This document shows, piece by piece, positions 23,120-37,046 of a DNA stretch of 64,000 nt (the stretch's first letter is position 1; the number at the start of each line of letters is the position of its first letter). Source of the stretch: Prochlorococcus sp. AG-676-L21. Its GTDB lineage: Bacteria; Cyanobacteriota; Cyanobacteriia; PCC-6307; Cyanobiaceae. The stretch covers positions 1-64,000 of the forward strand of contig QCUA01000002.1 in NCBI GenBank assembly GCA_003210915.1. Reading direction: 5' to 3'. Both the position numbers and the translations under genes were made by a program. The notes beneath the pieces are model-generated. The model was not told the origin of the DNA. It searched no databases and was given only the letters and a program-made list of their open reading frames with translations.

Positions 23120-24485
23120 TAATTTACTAAGAGCTCCTAACCAGAGTATTGAAGAAACTGGTTACGCTTGGTACGTAGGTAACGCCAGATTAATTAATTT
23201 GTCTGGACGTTTACTTGGAGCACACATTGCACACTCTGGACTTATTGTCTTTTGGGCTGGAGCAATGATGCTCTTTGAGGTTAATCATTTTACATTTGAT
23301 AAACCAATGTGGGAGCAAGGCTTAATCTGTATGCCACACGTTGCGATGTTTGGTTACGGTATTGGACCTGGTGGTGAAGTAACTGACATCATGCCTTTCT
23401 TCCAGGCTGGTGTGGTTCATCTAATAGCTTCTGCAGTTCTTGGCTTCGGTGGGATTTACCACTCATTGGCTGGACCTGAAAAGCTTGAAGAAGATTTTCC
23501 TTTCTTCTCAACTGATTGGAGAGATAAAAATCAAATGACTAACATACTTGGTTACCATTTGATTGTTTTAGGCGTAGGTGCATTAGCATGGTCAGTAAAC
23601 TGGTGTTTTATTGGTGGTGCTTATGATACTTGGGCTCCTGGAGGAGGAGAAGTTAGACTTGTTAACCCAACACTTGATCCAAGGGTAATTCTTGGTTATC
23701 TGTTTAGATCTCCCTGGGGAGGCGCTGGTTCAATAATCGGTGTTAACTCAATAGAAGATATTGTTGGTGGTCATGTCTATGTGGGTGTAACTGCAATTAT
23801 TGGAGGTATATTTCACATCTTTACCAAACCTTTTGGATGGGCTAGAAGAGCATTCATTTGGAATGGAGAAGGACTTCTAAGTTATGCACTTGGTGGAATT
23901 TGTGTTGCAAGTTTTATTGCATCAACTTTCATCTGGTTTAATAACACTGCTTACCCTTCAGAATTCTACGGTCCAACAAATGCTGAAGCTTCACAGGCAC
24001 AAAGCTTTACTTTCCTCGTGAGAGACCAAAGAATTGGAGCTAATGTAGGTTCAACAATGGGCCCAACAGGGTTAGGTAAATATCTCATGAGATCTCCTAC
24101 AGGAGAAATTATATTTGGTGGTGAAACAATGAGATTTTGGGACTTCAGAGGACCATGGTTAGAACCTCTAAGAGGTCCTAACGGATTGAGCCTCGAGAAG
24201 ATCCAAAACGATATTCAGCCTTGGCAAGTAAGAAGAGCAGCTGAATATATGACTCATGCTCCTAATGCTTCTATTAACTCTGTTGGAGGTATTATTACTG
24301 AGCCTAACGCTGTAAACTTTGTTAACTTAAGACAATGGTTAGCTGCAGCTCAATTCTTCCTAGGATGGTTTACATTCATCGGTCACCTTTGGCATGCTGG
24401 TCGTGCTAGAGCAGCCGCCGCCGGTTTCGAAAAAGGAATCGACAGAAAGAGTGAACCAGCTCTAGAAATGTCAGATCTAGATTAA
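23103..24485 (+). CDS. psbC: Photosystem II CP43 protein; GTG start overlapping psbD
   Basis: METPFNNL...; start at GTG 23103, 17-bp overlap with psbD, the conserved psbDC arrangement. Confidence 0.97.
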
Positions 24486-27189: not shown

Positions 27190-27286
27190 AAAAAAAAAGA
27201 CCTTTATTTCTAAAGGTCTTTTTCTGGTTTTACTGAATCAAGTGTTTCCTTGTTTCCACTTTTTCAGTAAAACCTCTCCTACACAC
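27190..27286 (-). ncRNA. Yfr2-family (Cyano-1-like) sRNA candidate
   Basis: Minus strand: GTGTGTAGGAGAGGTTTTACTGAAAAAGTGGAAACAAGGAAACACTTGATTCAGTAAAACC + terminator AAAAAGACCTTTAGAAATAAAGGTCTTTTTTTTT. 12-bp perfect stem (27226-27237/27263-27274), double GGAAACA loop, -10-like TATTAT at 27293-27298. Confidence 0.8.
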
Positions 27287-27388
27287 TTTCACATAATATG
27301 TCTTTTATTTCTTTTCCGTGGAAGGGGGTGAGTAATATTACTTAATTGTCACGTTTACCAGTTACGACCTTAAATACTTAATTGCATT

Positions 27389-27460
27389 AAAAAACACCCT
27401 AATTCTTAAGAATCGGGGCGTTTAGTATCAGAAATTAGTGTGTGAGGAGTTTCTGATGTT
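27389..27460 (-). ncRNA. Yfr1/Yfr10-like sRNA candidate
   Basis: Minus strand contains the exact 11-mer ACTCCTCACAC (27440-27450). It lies mostly in the loop of an 8-bp hairpin ATCAGAAA/TTTCTGAT (27427-27434/27450-27457), followed by terminator CGCCCCGATTCTTAAGAATTAGGGTGTTTTTT (27389-27420). Confidence 0.75.
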
Positions 27461-27516
27461 ATTAATCTAATAGAAAAGATCTCATTTCTAGTGTAATGTT
27501 AACACCATTTCTTTTC

Positions 27517-27723
27517 CTAAAACAGGGAAAGATTTGAAAACTGATTTTTAGTATCTACTACTGCAGTGCTTGTTGAGATTAACTTCCAACCGGCAGAATT
27601 ACGTTTTCTCATAATTACTGCAATCTCATTTTCTTGTCTTTGAGTATTTGCATTGCCTACTGCGTAATAGATATCAAGATCATTTTCTACATGTGACATA
27701 TTTAAATGTGCTGGTTTATTCAA
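27517..27723 (-). CDS. Small hypothetical protein
   Basis: 68-aa ORF, MNKPAHLNMSHVENDLDIYYAVGNANTQRQENEIAVIMRKRNSAGWKLISTSTAVV. Confidence 0.7.
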   Translation of the reverse strand: MNKPAHLNMSHVENDLDIYYAVGNANTQRQENEIAVIMRKRNSAGWKLISTSTAVVDTKNQFSNLSLF

Positions 27724-27897: not shown

Positions 27898-28145
27898 AAG
27901 ACAAAAGTTGGATATCTGGCAAAATGATTATATTAATTTGTTCAAAGAATAATCTTGTCAATTAAAGAACGCAATTACGATAATGATGGAACAGATCCAT
28001 CAGAAGAATATTTTAGAAAGAAGAAAAAAGATAATGATGATGATACCTACTTCCCCCTAGAAGAATCAGAACCACCACATTATTAAGAACAGTAGAAAAT
28101 TAATTGACAGATTCTTTAAAATTAAAAAAATAAAAAAATTTAAAT

Positions 28146-28550
28146 ATGACTGAACAAAGGAAAATAGAGAAATTTGGAGTCGGGAATTTGTATCCTGACA
28201 TTCATCCACCAGAATTTTCATTCTTTAAAAAAAAATGTATAGATGTAGCAATTGGATATGATGATGGTTTTACTTTCACTCCTAAATTTGGGAATTTTAA
28301 AGAAACTGAAGATATTTTTGATTACCTAAAACAATATCTTGAAGATAAAGAATTAGAAAAATTAGATATTCGTTTTGATACCTTAAAAACTTGTATATAC
28401 CAAATAAATCCTGAGACATTAGAACTTGGAGAATTATTGGAATGTGAAGGAAGTGATGTTAAATATTTTGAATGGAATAAACAAACTAAAAGTTTTGAAG
28501 AGGTTGAATCAAATTCACTAAGTGATGAAGAAGAAGAATATTTTCACTAA
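28146..28550 (+). CDS. Acidic hypothetical protein
   Basis: 134-aa ORF with coherent composition. Confidence 0.6.
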   Translation: MTEQRKIEKFGVGNLYPDIHPPEFSFFKKKCIDVAIGYDDGFTFTPKFGNFKETEDIFDYLKQYLEDKELEKLDIRFDTLKTCIYQINPETLELGELLECEGSDVKYFEWNKQTKSFEEVESNSLSDEEEEYFH

Positions 28551-28608
28551 GTAATGATAATTCATATTTCCCTTCAGAAGAAACTTAGCAAGTTGAGACA
28601 TTAATAAA

Positions 28609-28812
28609 ATGAATAAAGAGCTTAATTATGAAGAAGGATTATTTAATTACATTGTTTTGAAGGAAGAAAAGGAAGTGATCTTTTATTTACATAATCCCTA
28701 TCCAGATTGCTTAAAAATTCCAGATATAATGAAACAAAGGTTTCCTAGTGATTACAAGAGCATAGTTGTAAATTCTTTGGATGATTTCAAAAAGTATGGA
28801 GCAAAAAGTTGA
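28609..28812 (+). CDS. Hypothetical protein
   Basis: 67-aa ORF; 4-bp overlap with the next ORF. Confidence 0.5.
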   Translation: MNKELNYEEGLFNYIVLKEEKEVIFYLHNPYPDCLKIPDIMKQRFPSDYKSIVVNSLDDFKKYGAKS

Positions 28813-28991
28813 GCACTAAATGGGATGACACTTCATGGCAGAAAGAGTTCTTGAATATGAAGGCACATTCGCCTTCAGATGCCAAACTCTTAATGGGAGG
28901 TGTAAAAGGATTGAAAGGCGCTTGGCGTTTAGGTGTTCTACACGTTGAATACGAAAGATTGAAGAAAGCACAAGAGCAGCAACAGCAATGA
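28809..28991 (+). CDS. Hypothetical protein (TTG start)
   Basis: 60-aa ORF MSTKWDDTSWQKEFLNMKAHSPSDAKLLMGGVKGLKGAWRLGVLHVEYERLK; overlaps neighbours by 4 bp. Confidence 0.55.
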   Translation: MSTKWDDTSWQKEFLNMKAHSPSDAKLLMGGVKGLKGAWRLGVLHVEYERLKKAQEQQQQ

Positions 28992-29173
28992 AAGAAGAAA
29001 TAGATTGGAAAAAAGAATTGCTAGAAAGTGGAAGATTTAACGATCAATTTCAAAAGAATCTTTTAGAGAATAGTGATAAGAACTTCATGCAGGGCATATA
29101 TCTTGGATATATTTATTCCAGATGGAGAAAGATTAGGGGCTTAGATAAAGATGATCCAGTAGAAAATAAGTGA
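28988..29173 (+). CDS. Hypothetical protein
   Basis: 61-aa ORF MKEEIDWKKELLESGRF...; overlaps upstream ORF by 4 bp (operon-like). Confidence 0.55.
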   Translation: MKEEIDWKKELLESGRFNDQFQKNLLENSDKNFMQGIYLGYIYSRWRKIRGLDKDDPVENK

Positions 29174-29404
29174 AAAATGCAATCTTTATACAAAGAGTAT
29201 GAAAAGAAAATTAAATGAAAATGATATCTAATTCCCTAAAGAAGAATCAAAACCACCTCATTATTATCAAGCGATCTTGAGGAATCCACCAACACATTTA
29301 TGCATATACTGGTAAATGTTGGATTATATAGGACAAGCAACTTCTCTAAAATCCCATTTTGACTGCATTATTGCCCACATAGCAGTATTCAGGAAGATTA
29401 TTAA

Positions 29405-29416
29405 ACGGAGAGGGTG
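29405..29416 (+). repeat. Putative attL/attR-like copy of the tRNA-Ser 3' end (distal island boundary)
   Basis: ACGGAGAGGGTG identical and same orientation as 36902-36913 at the 3' end of tRNA-Ser(CGA). Confidence 0.5.
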
Positions 29417-29492
29417 TACATAGAATTCAATCTAGAATTCCAGTATAGACCTACTCTGACCACAGTTTAATTTAGTAATTCATATAAAACCT

Positions 29493-29510
29493 TGAGACAA
29501 CCTAGAGACA
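29493..29510 (+). repeat. Subterminal direct repeat (copy 1)
   Basis: TGAGACAACCTAGAGACA, 17/18 identical to 36761-36778. Confidence 0.65.
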
Positions 29511-29544
29511 TTTTTAGAAAATATTTTTTAATTGAAAGTAAAAT

Positions 29545-30255
29545 TCAAGTAATTAAAAAGTTTCCATTCTCCTTCAACCATTTTTTATGGTTTTTATATG
29601 AAGGATCATATTTCTCAACTTCTTGCCAGAAATTCTTTGAGTGATTGCATTGGATCATATGACAAAGTTCATGAATGACTACATAATCAACAATCGAATG
29701 TGGTGCTTTTATTAGATGCCAATTAAAGGTTAATCTTCCTTTTTTATCGCAAGAACCCCATCTAGTTTTGTAGTTTTTGACTTTTATTTCTCTTGGAGAA
29801 ACTCTAATAATTTCTGAATACTTAATGACTTTATCTTCCAATCTTTTGTACGCCTCTTGGACATACCATTTTTCAATATAAGTTCTAATTCTAAATTTTC
29901 TTACATCTCCAATTTCTGATGCTCGTACGTTTGTATGAAGATAATCACCATCTAATTTAGTTCCTACTCTTCCTCCTTCTACCACTTTTAACTTTAAATT
30001 CTTACCAAAAAGAGCAAAAGATTCACCACTAACAAACTCTCTTTCTTTACTCGCTGGTCTGCTTTGTATTTGAACTACTTTATTTCTAATCCATCTTTTT
30101 TTAGTTTCTAAGATTTCAACTATTTTTCCATCTTTTACTCTATTTGGAACTCTTATTTGAAGTTCATCACCAACAATATGAAGTGCTGAAGTTTTTCTTT
30201 TGGATCGAACCACTTCTACTTTTAATCCAAATAACTCTTTTGGAATTGCACTCAT
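29545..30255 (-). CDS. YgjP-like (DUF45) metallopeptidase
   Basis: VIHELCHMIQCNHSKNFW zinc-binding motif, KNYKTRWGSCDKKGRLTFNWHLIKAP. Confidence 0.9.
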   Translation of the reverse strand: MSAIPKELFGLKVEVVRSKRKTSALHIVGDELQIRVPNRVKDGKIVEILETKKRWIRNKVVQIQSRPASKEREFVSGESFALFGKNLKLKVVEGGRVGTKLDGDYLHTNVRASEIGDVRKFRIRTYIEKWYVQEAYKRLEDKVIKYSEIIRVSPREIKVKNYKTRWGSCDKKGRLTFNWHLIKAPHSIVDYVVIHELCHMIQCNHSKNFWQEVEKYDPSYKNHKKWLKENGNFLIT

Positions 30256-33230
30256 TTGAATTTCACCCTTGCAAGTTCCATAAATCTTTCAATAACTATT
30301 TTCCTAAGTTCAGGATCATCAAATGCATCTTCAATCATTGCTCTTTTTATATTTCTCTGCATAGTTTTAATCTCATCTTGTTTCAAGAAGAAACCAACAA
30401 TCTTTGAAGATTCTTCAAATTGATTTACCAGTTTTTTAACTAAAGACAAAATCCTTTGATGAATTTCATCAGAGAACGTTTCCTCACCTGATGATTTAAC
30501 TATTTCTGCCATCAAAATATTGTAGAAAGCAAATTCAGTTTCATTTAATCCAAGATCATTTGCTTTCTGACCTTTTTCTTTTTCTAAACCATCTCTAAAA
30601 AGTAAAAGTTGACGAACTAGTTCATCCCACTTCTCCTCATAATTTCCAATTATTTCATTTAATCGTAAAGACAGAGATTGATAATATTCTGGATCATCTT
30701 CAAGTTTGAGTTTTATATGTGCCTTAATTGCGTGTTCTATTTCTGATGCTTTCACTTCATCACCTTTAATATCTCTAAGAGTTTTAAGAAAGGATTCATC
30801 AAATAATTTTGTAGGAGGAACACGAGGATCAATTCCTGATGCAAAAACATGATCTTCAATTAATTTCTTTACTTTCTCACCAGAACCAAGAATATTTATT
30901 TGCTCGTCTCTATATCTATTTCTTGCCCCAATTGCAATTTTTCCAAGTGATTTTAAATCTTTAATGAAAGGCGATGCTGCCTTATCTGGAAGAACCACTT
31001 CCATCTGTTTTGAGAAACTTCTAAAGTCAATTTCAAACTGCTGACGTTTTAAATCATCTTTCAAAAGAGAGATACATTTTTCCAAATCTGAAATATCAAC
31101 ATCTTTAAAATGATTTATTACTCTTGTGTGTGTTGCTTCTAGTTTGGGAATCTCATCAGTTAAATTTCTTAATGCACCTTTAACATCAGTTGCTGAGAAA
31201 ACTTCTAACGCTTCTTTTAAATAATCCGTTAATCCATAGTAATCAACAATATAACCGATGAATTTCTTCGCCTTTGTTCTATTAACTCTAGCAATTGCTT
31301 GGAGTAAAGAATGATCAGTTAATTTTCTATCCAAGTACATAACCTGACAAATAGGAGCATCAAATCCTGTAAGTAACATATCTTTCACAATCAATATTGA
31401 TAAAGAACTTTCATCTAGTGGTTTCTTGAAATTATCTATTGCAGTTTTATGATCTGCTTTATTTGTCCACTTTGACATCTCAGGTGGATCATTATGATCA
31501 CCAGAAATAATTACTGCAGAATCAGGTGCATCTGGAATCTCATCTAATTTCTTTTTATAAGTAACTGCTGCTTCTCTACTAGAAGTCACAATCATTACTT
31601 TGAATCCATTTGGCATTATCTTTTCTCGATAGTGTTCTACAAGATCAAGAGCAATCCATTCGATTCTTTTTGGTGCCTCTAACACTGCCCGTACGGTTCC
31701 ATATTTTTTCTTTATTGCGTTTTTTTCTTCTGGAGTTTTATCTTTAAAATATCTTTCAAATAGTGCGTCTAAAGAATCGCCAGTAACCTTGGTAATCGCT
31801 TCTCTGCCTTCATAAAGTATTTGTAAAGTCGCCCCATCAGCAACTGCTTGTTCAATAGTGTATTGATCAATAAATTCTCCAAATTCATGAACAGTTTCAC
31901 CCTTCATTTTTCCAGTAATCAGAGGAGTACCTGTAAATGCAATCTTTGGTGCATTAGGCAATGCAGTATTAATAGCAGCACCTAAAGTTCCATATTGAGT
32001 TCTATGTGCCTCATCAGTTAAAACAATTATTCGATCTGAATCATTTAAACAAGAAAAATCTAAATCATCCTCTTCTAGTTTTTGAATAGTAGAGGTTATT
32101 AGATCTGATGAATCTTTACGAAGTAATTCCTTTAATTTAGAAACAGATTTTGCATTTAAAACAGTTTCTCCTTGTGCTCCTCTAAATGTATTTGTAAGTT
32201 GCTTATCAAGTTGCGTTCTATCTGTTAGAAAAACTAATTTATAATCACTTAATAATGGATCTCTTCTTATTTTTTGAGTCAAAAAAACCATTGTTAATGA
32301 TTTTCCTGAACCTTGTGTATGCCAAATAACTCCTCCTTTTTGTTTTCTATCTCCTGGAGTTTTTAATCTTGAAATTGTTTTTTGAACTGCTCTAAATTGT
32401 TGATATCTTGCAATCTTTTTTATTGTTCTTCCATCTTCTACTTCAAAGATCATGAAGTTCTGAATAATATCTAAAAACTTTTGAGGTTTTAACAACCCTT
32501 CAATAAGAATTTCTTGTGAATATGGACTATCACCTAATTCTTCCTTCTTTGTTGGGTAAGGATCTTTCCATTCCAAATAGTATTCATAGGGTGATGAAAT
32601 TGTTCCAACTCTTGAACTATCTCTATGAGTTGAAATCATTACTTGATTGAAATGAAATAGTTTCTGACATCCTTCATTATTTTCAGGATTTCTCAAATTT
32701 GCATAACGCCTTAATTGATTAATCCCTGCTTCCATCGGATCAGTAATGTAAGGTGATTTACACTCAATAACTCCAAGAGGCAACCCATTTACGAAAAGAA
32801 TAATATCAGGAATAATATTTTGAGTTAGTCCTTGAACCTTGAACTGATTAACACAAAGGAACTCATTATTTTGAATATTTTCAAAATCAATCAATTTAAC
32901 TGTTTGACCTCTTCGACCTTTACCTAGATCTTGCTCAACAGAAAAATATTGAGTGAGTCGTTCCCAAAACCATTGATTCGCCTCCATTAAAGTTGAGGTT
33001 TGAATTACGGTAATTTCTCGAATAATCTTTCGAAGATTTTCTTCGCTAATCCAAGGATTGATTTGTTTTATCGATTGCTCAAGGTTTGGAATAAGAACTA
33101 CTTCTTTAATAGATGAACGAATATTTGAAGTTTCGGGAGAAAGTTCTTTCCCATCTTTATAAGACCAACCATTCCTTTGAAGTTGTTCTAGTGCAGGTTG
33201 CTCTACGTAGATAAGTTCATCATTTGCCAT
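30252..33230 (-). CDS. hsdR: Type I restriction enzyme R subunit
   Basis: Nuclease-domain motif DIILFVNGLPLGVIECKSP; Walker A HTQGSGKSLTM; DEAH TDEAHRTQYG; QAIARVNRT. Confidence 0.96.
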   Translation of the reverse strand: MANDELIYVEQPALEQLQRNGWSYKDGKELSPETSNIRSSIKEVVLIPNLEQSIKQINPWISEENLRKIIREITVIQTSTLMEANQWFWERLTQYFSVEQDLGKGRRGQTVKLIDFENIQNNEFLCVNQFKVQGLTQNIIPDIILFVNGLPLGVIECKSPYITDPMEAGINQLRRYANLRNPENNEGCQKLFHFNQVMISTHRDSSRVGTISSPYEYYLEWKDPYPTKKEELGDSPYSQEILIEGLLKPQKFLDIIQNFMIFEVEDGRTIKKIARYQQFRAVQKTISRLKTPGDRKQKGGVIWHTQGSGKSLTMVFLTQKIRRDPLLSDYKLVFLTDRTQLDKQLTNTFRGAQGETVLNAKSVSKLKELLRKDSSDLITSTIQKLEEDDLDFSCLNDSDRIIVLTDEAHRTQYGTLGAAINTALPNAPKIAFTGTPLITGKMKGETVHEFGEFIDQYTIEQAVADGATLQILYEGREAITKVTGDSLDALFERYFKDKTPEEKNAIKKKYGTVRAVLEAPKRIEWIALDLVEHYREKIMPNGFKVMIVTSSREAAVTYKKKLDEIPDAPDSAVIISGDHNDPPEMSKWTNKADHKTAIDNFKKPLDESSLSILIVKDMLLTGFDAPICQVMYLDRKLTDHSLLQAIARVNRTKAKKFIGYIVDYYGLTDYLKEALEVFSATDVKGALRNLTDEIPKLEATHTRVINHFKDVDISDLEKCISLLKDDLKRQQFEIDFRSFSKQMEVVLPDKAASPFIKDLKSLGKIAIGARNRYRDEQINILGSGEKVKKLIEDHVFASGIDPRVPPTKLFDESFLKTLRDIKGDEVKASEIEHAIKAHIKLKLEDDPEYYQSLSLRLNEIIGNYEEKWDELVRQLLLFRDGLEKEKGQKANDLGLNETEFAFYNILMAEIVKSSGEETFSDEIHQRILSLVKKLVNQFEESSKIVGFFLKQDEIKTMQRNIKRAMIEDAFDDPELRKIVIERFMELARVKFK

Positions 33231-33233
33231 CTC

Positions 33234-34460
33234 TTATAAAACCACTCTTTTATAACCTAATAAAAGGTCTTGAATTAATGATCTTTGAAGGTTTTCCATC
33301 TGAAATAAGTATTCTTTTTCCTTTATTATTCTCTTATCGACAGATGAGAGAATTAGTGAAATTTCGTGTTGTTCTTCAATTAAAGGAAAAGCAAATTCAT
33401 AATCTAAAAGATTCTGAGTGTTAATAGAATTAATTGTCGCACCTATGTCTCTAGAGACCTGTTTAAAGAAAATATTAGATTCAATTAAATATTTAACAAA
33501 CTCATATTGATTAGTTCTAAATATTGTCATGAATGCACCATGAGTTGCTCTTGGAAGATTTCCAGTAATGACTGCACTTTTACCTAATAATCTTCTTGAA
33601 CCATTTCGAACGCAAATTAAGATATCTCCAATTTTTGATATAAATTCACTTTTTACATCTTTTTTTACATAAACCAAATCATCAAAAACAACATTTCCAT
33701 CTTCAATATTTGAAGATCTTAAAACTAGTAAACCTTGGTCTGAAAGATCATCTGGAGAATAAGTAAGACCTCTAATACAAGAACCAATTTCTCTTAATTT
33801 CTTGATTTCCCATGTTTTAGGAATCTTACCTAATTTACTATCTTTAAAGTTTTCATTTCTCAAACCTTTAGAAAGCAATTTTTCTCTTAGTGCAATTTTA
33901 AGTGACTTTATTTTTTTTATTTTTAATTTAGAGTTGATAATTATTGAATCGTTTGTACTTAATATTTCAGCAATCTTTTTTTGCTCTGGGAGTGGTGGTA
34001 CTGGAAGAGATGCATCAAAAAACTCTGTTATTCCAAGATTCAAAAGTCCATGACTTCTCGCTCCTTCCTTGGCGATACTATAAATTGCATCAATAAACCA
34101 TTGTGACTTAAACAAATAATCTGCATATCTGAGATCTAATATTTCTTGATTAATACAAAAACAAATATAAAGGGGTGAAACTATTCCATTAGAATATTTT
34201 CTCAATCTTCTGGCAGCACCTACAGGAAAACCATCGGAATAACTTTTATTGTAAGCAAATTCACCATTCTCTAATAGTGTATATCCACTAGTATCTTTAC
34301 TTGCAACTATCTTTTTAAAATACTCTTTTTGAGCAATAAGACCATCACTTGCAGAGATAGTTAGGACATTATCGCAAATTTGTTTATTATTTTTTCTATT
34401 AACTCTTTTTGCAAATTGACCAATTTTGATTTTTGTCCAATTTGGTGGGAACTTATTCAT
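33234..34460 (-). CDS. hsdS: Type I restriction enzyme specificity subunit
   Basis: Two target-recognition halves each followed by [11 protein letters not shown] / [12 protein letters not shown]-type conserved regions. Confidence 0.93.
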
Positions 34461-36195
34461 ACCCCAACTCCTTCAAGAATTTATTCATTACTGCCTCAGA
34501 TTCTTTTAGATCACTATCAATCTGAGAAAGGGAAATCCCATACTTGTCCCACCAACGTTCCAATTGTCGAACAACTGAATCAGGAACATCTCCAAGAACT
34601 TTTCGTATTTGTGTTTTATCTGTAATTTCTTCCTTAAATTGCATGTATTCAGAATTTTTATTTTCTAAAATAACATTCACATCAAATCCATAAATTATCT
34701 CTTGTATATAATCATCTCGAACCTCTTTAATTGGAATCCCACCATTAAGAATTCCTTTTAAGTCAAAATTCTCAGGGGGTGGGGAAGTATCAGCATATCT
34801 TCGGATATTAAGGTTATATTCATTTTCTCTTATTTCATTCAAATCGATAACTCTTGAAAACCTTTTAATTTCCTCATATGAACCATAACAATTTACAATT
34901 TTTTCTATATCTTGATCTCTAAGAATATTCTGATTTTTGCCTTCCTGATAGTCAAGTTCAGCATTAATAAATAGAACCTTATCTTTCTTATGAGAATCTT
35001 TTTGTTTATTGATAATTAAAAGTGTTGCAGGAATTCCAGTTCCATAAAACAGTGAAGAGGGAAGACCTATCACTGCCTCGATAAGATCATTTTCGAGTAT
35101 TCCTTTTCTAATTTCACCTTCTGATGCTCCCCTAAACAGAACACCATGAGGAACAACAACACCCATAATCCCTTCATTATTTAAAGAGGCAATCATATGC
35201 TGAACAAATGCAAGGTCTCCAGCATCTTTTGGAGGTAGTCCAAATCGATACCTTCCATATCCATCAGTTTCTGCATCATCTCTCCCCCATTTTTTTAATG
35301 AAAAAGGTGGATTTGCAATTACACGATCGAATCGCATTAACTCCCCATTCTCAACATGTTGAGGACTTCCAAGAGTATCTCCTTTCCTTATATCTGCACT
35401 ACGAACACCATGCAAAAACATATTTAATTTACATATTGCCCATGTACTTAAATTTCTTTCTTGACCAGACAACATTAGATTTGAGGAATCCTCACCATTC
35501 CTTGTTAGGTAATTTCTTGTTTGTATAAGCATTCCACCTGAACCACAAGTTGGGTCATAAACTTTCATTCCTGCTTTTGGTTTTATAAGTTCAACTAATA
35601 ATTTGACTACTTCACTAGGTGTATAAAACTCTCCACCTTTTTTGCCTGCAGAATCCGCAAACATCTTGATCAGATATTCATATGCAGCACCAAGCAAATC
35701 AGGTCTATCAAAATCAGATTTTCTCAATCTATATTTTGAATAATGAGATAAAAGATCACTTAATTTTTTATCTGTAAGTTTATCTTTGATATTGAAATCA
35801 ATGGATACTAAAACACCTTCAAGTGTTGAATTTTGCTCTTCAATTGCTTCAGTTGCTTTATTAAGTTCTGAACCAACATCATGTTTTAGATTTTTAAGTT
35901 TTTCCCATCTTGCTACTTCAGGAACAAAGAATGTTTTGTCGTATTCGTCTTGCTCTGAGGCAAACTGTTCTGCTTGCTGTTGAGTTTTACCAGTATCTAA
36001 ATAATGTTGAATAACATTTTCTCTCTCCTCATCAAAAGCATCAGATAGATGCTTTAGAAATAACATTCCAAATATATAATCTTTGAATTCAGAAGCATCT
36101 AAACTACCTCTCAAAATATCTGCACTTTCCCAAAGGAATGACTCAAGTTGAGAAAGAGTTAATTTTTCATCTGTTTGAGGGGAAGAAACGCTCAC
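34453..36195 (-). CDS. hsdM: Type I restriction enzyme methylase subunit
   Basis: [42 protein letters not shown]. Confidence 0.97.
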
Positions 36196-36305
36196 TTAAA
36201 ACTCATTTTTTAGTATTTTATCCTTGTTTTATTAGATGTCTTTTCTAATGCTTACAATTGAAGTTAAATTTGTTATTTTTCTAGGTGAAGAGCGAAAATT
36301 AAATC

Positions 36306-36500
36306 ATGATTACTAATAAGAGATACCAAACGTTATTAATGCTTGCTACTACAGGTAAACCATTAAATAAAGACACTACGGAAGAAGAAAAGAAATTCTA
36401 CGAAGAATGCAAACATGACTATGAAGTAATGCATGAAACCGCCAAGAAACATGGCATAAAGAATCCAATTTTAGAAATACCAATGGAAATAGATTTTTAA
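36306..36500 (+). CDS. Hypothetical protein
   Basis: 64-aa ORF. Confidence 0.5.
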   Translation: MITNKRYQTLLMLATTGKPLNKDTTEEEKKFYEECKHDYEVMHETAKKHGIKNPILEIPMEIDF

Positions 36501-36508
36501 GAGGAATA

Positions 36509-36700
36509 ATGCAACCACCACTGACTTCTGAAGAATTAGCAGAAATGTACCCCGACTTAGAACCTTGGCAAAGGGATGAACTAGAAGTTTGGCACAGAGG
36601 ATGGATTACAAAATTGATGACCGGTGATGCAACATCAGAAGAATATAATACTGCGATACCTCCACATCCAGATCCACATCATCCCGAAGATGATGAGTAA
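36509..36700 (+). CDS. Hypothetical protein with His/Pro/Asp-rich C-terminus
   Basis: 63-aa ORF ending PPHPDPHHPEDDE. Confidence 0.5.
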   Translation: MQPPLTSEELAEMYPDLEPWQRDELEVWHRGWITKLMTGDATSEEYNTAIPPHPDPHHPEDDE

Positions 36701-36760
36701 AATGAGGTTTGAAAATTATTTTTATCTCTCAAAAACCTAGAGACTTTAAAAAAATAACCC

Positions 36761-36778
36761 TGAGACAACATAGAGACA
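36761..36778 (+). repeat. Subterminal direct repeat (copy 2)
   Basis: TGAGACAACATAGAGACA; a related AAACCTAGAGACTTT lies at about 36732-36746. Confidence 0.65.
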
Positions 36779-36902
36779 AGAGTGGTCATTGTGGTAAATT
36801 ATAAAAGTCAAACGGGTTAAAGAATACCTAAAATAACTCAGTCATAACAGTCAATCTGGACATTCTGACCAATTCTGACTACATCTTATTTGTATATAAA
36901 TA

Positions 36903-36988
36903 CGGAGAGGGTGGGATTCGAACCCACGAACAGTCTCCTGTTAAACGATTTCGAGTCGTTCGCTTTCGACCACTCAGCCACCTCTCCG
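36903..36988 (-). tRNA. trnS-CGA: tRNA-Ser(CGA)
   Basis: CGGAGAGGTGGCTGAGTGGTCGAAAGCGAACGACTCGAAATCGTTTAACAGGAGACTGTTCGTGGGTTCGAATCCCACCCTCTCCG; 7-bp acceptor stem, long variable arm, CTCGAAA anticodon loop. Confidence 0.97.
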
Positions 36989-37046
36989 TAATTAAACAAT
37001 ATATATATAAATCTATAAATTTATTTTATGTTTTATATCTTAAGCT

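What the first reader, a model, noticed from the sequence alone, without database searches (positions are those of the whole stretch)
27389..27472. Yfr1/Yfr10-like sRNA candidate carrying the exact ACTCCTCACAC core
On the minus strand the 11-mer ACTCCTCACAC (27440-27450) is presented mostly in the 15-nt loop of an 8-bp hairpin. A strong terminator (CGCCCCGATTCTTAAGAATTAGGGTG + T6) follows, and a -10-like TATTAG sits at about 27467-27472. The same core defines the Prochlorococcus sRNA Yfr1 and is shared by the less conserved Yfr10 family (recalled literature). The loop display differs from the single-stranded display between two stems described for Yfr1, which fits a Yfr10-type RNA better. No guaB/trxA neighbours (the usual Yfr1 locus) are visible.
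Basis: partly seen in the sequence, partly recalled or inferred. Interest (0 to 1): 0.8.

Follow-up and report, generated by a model that had tools for sequence, protein, structure and literature searches.

The report
Prochlorococcus Yfr10-family small RNA, Yfr2-paired
This is an ordinary new copy of a small regulatory RNA (the Yfr10 family) already known from the ocean cyanobacterium Prochlorococcus, sitting as usual just in front of its partner small RNA Yfr2, with which it can base-pair.

Summary
Rfam finds Yfr10 (RF02362) at 27379-27457(-), 75.4 bits against a cut-off of 43. Its 5' motif GUGUGUAGGAG is complementary to the Yfr10 loop. This tandem is published for high-light Prochlorococcus. 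In 98 of 100 Yfr10 hits examined here, a Yfr2 core follows 159-193 nt downstream. The terminator type and a tree place the window copy with the MED4 paralogue Yfr12. It keeps the intact 11-mer that MED4 Yfr12 has lost; MED4 is the only one of 17 Yfr12-type copies that lost it. The genome also carries Yfr10, Yfr18 and Yfr1 orthologues and a degenerate fourth tandem copy. Likely mechanism: Yfr10 loop pairs with mRNAs, and Yfr2 pairs with and sequesters Yfr10. The family, tandem arrangement and mechanism are known, so this is a new member of a known kind. Minor additions: a better-placed -10 element, a conserved upstream promoter palindrome, and a small protein gene linked to the cassette.

The parts
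27389..27457 (-). Yfr10-family sRNA (Yfr12-type paralogue), about 69-78 nt; Rfam span 27379-27457
   Evidence: RF02362 75.4 bits, GA 43, E 6e-10; fold z -5.2; tree
27427..27457 (-). 5' hairpin, 8-bp stem, 15-nt loop
27440..27450 (-). 11-mer ACUCCUCACAC, presented in the loop; pairs with Yfr2 5' motif and presumably mRNAs
27389..27420 (-). intrinsic terminator of the Yfr10 unit (CGCCCCGATTC/GAATTAGGGTG + T6, Yfr12-type)
27464..27469 (-). -10 element TAGATT (-12 to -7), conserved among paralogues
   Evidence: inferred
27491..27505 (-). upstream promoter element GTGTTAACATTACAC (imperfect palindrome; AGTAATTAATACT-like in Yfr10/Yfr18-type loci), about -34 to -48
   Evidence: function inferred
27221..27288 (-). 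Yfr2-family sRNA (Cyano-1), partner RNA
   Evidence: RF01701 65 bits, GA 41
27276..27286 (-). Yfr2 5' motif GTGTGTAGGAG complementary to the Yfr10 loop
27344..27363 (-). palindromic element upstream of Yfr2 (AACTGGTAAACGTGACAATT; relatives AACTGTCACATGTGACAGTT), possibly the published CGRE1 site of the GntR regulator
   Evidence: identity with CGRE1 not verified
27190..27223 (-). terminator after Yfr2, T-runs on both sides; closes a possible 268-nt Yfr10-Yfr2 precursor
   Evidence: published MED4 precursor 270 nt (PMC2518516)
27517..27723 (-). o68, conserved small protein gene upstream of Yfr10 (conserved start at 27699)

Best explanation
The minus strand encodes a Yfr10-family sRNA (Yfr12-type) from its own promoter (+1 near 27457) to its own terminator (near 27389), with a second promoter and a Yfr2-family sRNA just downstream. 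The CU-rich loop is held open on a hairpin and base-pairs with G/A-rich sites in mRNAs. The neighbouring Yfr2 carries the complement of the same loop in its unstructured 5' tail, so the two RNAs pair and Yfr2 takes Yfr10 (and Yfr1) away from mRNA targets, while Yfr10 shields Yfr2 from RNase E. Shown here: sequence, fold, family membership, tandem arrangement, conservation and predicted pairing. Inferred from published MED4 work: expression, target binding, titration and RNase E protection.
For: Rfam Yfr10 75.4 bits and Cyano-1 65 bits on the same strand. 96/121 genus genomes have RF02362. 98 of 100 hits examined have a Yfr2 core 159-193 nt downstream. Predicted Yfr10-Yfr2 interaction gain is -12.5 kcal/mol against a mean of -5.1 for shuffled Yfr2 tails (2 of 200 as good) and -5.4 for shuffled loops (1 of 200). 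The tree places it in one clade with MED4 Yfr12. PMC2518516 and PMC6778093 report the same tandem, Northern/5'RACE detection, Yfr1/Yfr10-Yfr2 binding, and loss of mRNA (ppa) binding when UCCU in the motif is changed.
Against: No expression data for this genome. The Yfr10 loop drifts in many Yfr10-type copies (20 of 33 exact) while the Yfr2 motif is kept (91 of 99 overall), so the adjacent pair is not strictly co-conserved and Yfr2 may answer mainly to Yfr1. An unrestricted duplex energy on whole molecules is no better than shuffles; only the structure-aware test is.
Confidence: 0.93

Rival explanations
1. It is a Yfr1 copy: same 11-mer, constitutive regulator.
For: Identical 11-mer.
Against: RF01116 not matched even at E <= 1; the genome has a separate Yfr1; core is in a loop and not between two stems; no guaB/trxA.
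Confidence: 0.01
2. It is mainly a decoy or expression partner for Yfr2 (a sponge), with few mRNA targets of its own.
For: Almost always adjacent to Yfr2, predicted pairing, published 270-nt joint precursor and inhibition of Yfr2 cleavage by RNase E (PMC2518516, PMC6778093).
Against: CRAFD-Seq recovered 253 Yfr10-associated mRNAs in MED4 (PMC6778093); that was for Yfr10, not for Yfr12-type copies.
Confidence: 0.2
3. A decayed or silent paralogue, as MED4 Yfr12 was described.
For: Belongs to the Yfr12-type clade; the upstream o68 frame ends 4 codons early.
Against: Loop, stem, terminator, -10 and Yfr2 motif all intact; 16 of 17 Yfr12-type copies keep the exact 11-mer.
Confidence: 0.06

Closest known systems
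Yfr10 (RF02362), Prochlorococcus MED4 346661-346738
   Same: 11-mer in the apical loop of a 5' hairpin, terminator, adjacent downstream Yfr2
   Different: Terminator stem is of the Yfr12 type; the true Yfr10 orthologue of this genome is on contig C20
Yfr12, MED4 (PMC2518516)
   Same: Same subtype by terminator and tree; Yfr2-family RNA (Yfr4) downstream; o68 upstream
   Different: Loop is intact ACUCCUCACAC, not ACUCCUCAUAU; lies after cobQ-ferredoxin and not at the MED4 383-kb locus
Yfr18, MED4
   Same: Same 11-mer and Yfr2-family (Yfr5) partner
   Different: Different terminator and fixed locus; the orthologue here is on contig C40
Yfr1 (RF01116)
   Same: 11-mer
   Different: Different structure, locus and model

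Membership tests
Yfr10 family (RF02362) | covariance model score above gathering cut-off | tested here: met
   75.4 vs 43 bits, full length 1-78
Yfr10 family (RF02362) | ACUCCUCACAC displayed in the loop of a 5' hairpin | tested here: met
   stem pairs conserved, one-side and two-side changes in relatives
Yfr10 family (RF02362) | intrinsic terminator ending a 70-80 nt RNA | tested here: met
Yfr10 family (RF02362) | encoded just upstream of a Yfr2-family sRNA (HL Prochlorococcus) | tested here: met
   RF01701 at 27221-27288(-)
Yfr10 family (RF02362) | expressed as a small RNA, dark-induced | not testable with these tools
   no transcript data
Yfr12-type subgroup | groups with MED4 Yfr12 in a tree; CCGATTC-type terminator | tested here: met
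   clade of 18 with support 89/95 that holds both the window copy and MED4 Yfr12; terminator type
Yfr12-type subgroup | CAUAU change in the motif as in MED4 Yfr12 | tested here: not met
   window motif intact; the change is specific to MED4 among 17 copies, so it is not a defining feature of the subgroup
Yfr1 (RF01116) | covariance model match | tested here: not met
   absent at E <= 1; real Yfr1 in L044
Yfr1 (RF01116) | guaB/trxA neighbourhood | tested here: not met
   neighbours are cobQ, a ferredoxin, o68

The most novel reading that the evidence does not exclude
The small protein gene o68, Yfr10/Yfr12 and Yfr2 form one three-part cassette that duplicates and settles in variable chromosomal regions, and the small protein takes part in control of the sRNA pair.
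Probability: 0.2. Interest if true: 0.45.

Novelty: new member of a known kind. Interest (0 to 1): 0.2.

Why it matters
It also shows that the MED4 Yfr12 motif change is a local exception, so Yfr12-type copies should be counted as probable working members of the Yfr1/Yfr10/Yfr2 network in other strains. The conserved promoter palindrome and the linked small protein are testable leads on how Yfr10 is regulated by light, which PMC6778093 lists as unknown.

Tried and rejected
Yfr1 identity: rejected. Weak Rfam hits in the same stretch (NsiR1, sroB, MCS4, MicC; all below gathering score) taken as chance. The generic sigma-70 scan found no promoter on this strand near 27470, so the -10 was placed by comparison of relatives. 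Plain duplex energy against shuffled Yfr2 was uninformative because shuffled strands pair with the terminator arm; it was replaced by a structure-aware test (a first run with 1000 shuffles timed out). The MED4 record by accession was not in the collections; MED4 was recognised as G014 by its published Yfr10 coordinates.

Full report
Observation. The 11-mer ACTCCTCACAC is at 27440-27450 on the minus strand and is the only copy in the window, with 0.02 expected. The 8-bp hairpin with a 15-nt loop and the T-tailed terminator are real and fold much better than shuffled sequence (-19.8 kcal/mol, z -5.2).

Identity. Rfam gives Yfr10 (RF02362) over its full length at 27379-27457(-), 75.4 bits against a cut-off of 43. 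Yfr1 is not matched. The same genome (1.37 Mb, 81% complete) has two more Yfr10-family genes (C20, C40), four Yfr2-family genes and a separate Yfr1. The 11-mer occurs four times in the genome, always in these RNAs; the reversed control pattern occurs zero times.

A Yfr2-family RNA (Cyano-1, 65 bits) lies at 27221-27288(-), directly downstream. Its 5' motif GUGUGUAGGAG is the near-complement of the Yfr10 loop. The distance from the Yfr10 start to the end of the Yfr2 terminator is 268 nt (27457 to 27190); a 270-nt Yfr10-Yfr2 precursor was reported in MED4 (PMC2518516, Table 1). The tandem arrangement is published for MED4 and for high-light strains (PMC2518516, PMC6778093).

Relatives. 96 of 121 genomes of the genus carry RF02362. 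Of 100 hits whose DNA I read (99 fetched plus the window), 98 have a Yfr2 core 159-193 nt downstream on the same strand; the two exceptions, L062 and L078, also lack one by Rfam. One genome, G014, has the exact published coordinates of MED4 Yfr10 (346661-346738), so it serves as the named reference. Terminator sequence and a tree of 97 tandem units divide the copies into Yfr10, Yfr12 and Yfr18 types; the outer Yfr18 split is firm, the finer forks less so. The window copy falls in one clade with MED4 Yfr12, next to G009:C8. MED4 Yfr12 was described as a mutated variant (CAUAU; PMC2518516). Here 16 of 17 Yfr12-type copies, the window's included, keep the exact 11-mer, so the MED4 change is an exception. 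The Yfr18-type copies sit at one fixed locus (40 of 40). The window copy lies after cobQ and a ferredoxin gene, a place where 16 other genomes carry a Yfr10-type tandem of a different clade and where MED4 has none.

Mechanism. Published MED4 work shows that Yfr1 and Yfr10 bind Yfr2, that Yfr2 displaces them from the ppa mRNA, that changing UCCU in the motif abolishes ppa binding, and that Yfr1/Yfr10 binding protects Yfr2 from RNase E (PMC6778093). Here the window's own pair shows a predicted interaction of -12.5 kcal/mol beyond self-folding, matched by 2 of 200 shuffled Yfr2 tails and 1 of 200 shuffled loops. I infer the same action for this copy. Caveat: across copies the Yfr10 loop is exact in 74 of 99 units and the Yfr2 motif in 91 of 99, so Yfr2 is under stronger constraint than its neighbour, as expected if it also serves Yfr1 and the other Yfr10-family RNAs.

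Promoters. Upstream of the Yfr10 start all types keep TARATT at about -12 to -7. Yfr10 and Yfr18 types keep AGTAATT(A/T)ATACT at about -50 to -38, and the window has a diverged GTGTTAACATTACAC at -48 to -34.

Side finding. A small ORF (o68; 64 residues in relatives) ends about 48 nt before the Yfr10 start in most of the roughly 28 Yfr10- and Yfr12-type loci that have it at this position. Codon positions vary as in a protein under selection (position 3 differences 3663, positions 1 and 2 1639 and 1156), though several copies are broken. In two other genera an o68 homologue also lies close to a Yfr2 (within about 0.5 kb) without a detected Yfr10. No Pfam or NCBIfam family matches it.

Verdict. 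A sound observation and a correct interpretation of a known RNA family; new member, Yfr12 subtype, low surprise.

Noticed in passing
window 27517-27723 (-): Small ORF o68 (MxxVENDLDIYYAVGNANTQRQENEIAxIM...), no known family, linked at fixed spacing to Yfr10/Yfr12-Yfr2 units across the genus, and near Yfr2 alone in two other genera (L156, L158). The window copy ends 4 codons early.
   Followed up: partly
window 23517-23700 (-): Rfam IsrR hit (155 bits) on the antisense strand of psbC; IsrR is the antisense RNA of isiA, a psbC paralogue, so this is probably an echo of coding similarity, not an sRNA.
   Followed up: no
window 28100-36990: Region between the ferredoxin gene and tRNA-Ser(CGA) holds small hypothetical genes, a YgjP-like metallopeptidase and a complete type I restriction-modification system (hsdR 30252-33230, hsdS 33234-34460, hsdM 34453-36195); looks like a variable island.
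   Followed up: partly
G000:C18:10147 region (L043): Fourth Yfr2 of this genome has a degenerate Yfr10-like unit upstream (TCTTCTCACAC, no good stem); same in G111:C11 (L076).
   Followed up: partly
G030 (51% complete genome), loci L054-L058: Six Yfr10-family hits in an incomplete 0.8-Mb genome, two of them on opposite strands of contig C5 within 1.7 kb: unusual copy-number expansion.
   Followed up: no
L041:4448-4525: Yfr13 (RF02364) about 1.1 kb downstream of the Yfr10-Yfr2 pair on contig C20 of the same genome.
   Followed up: no
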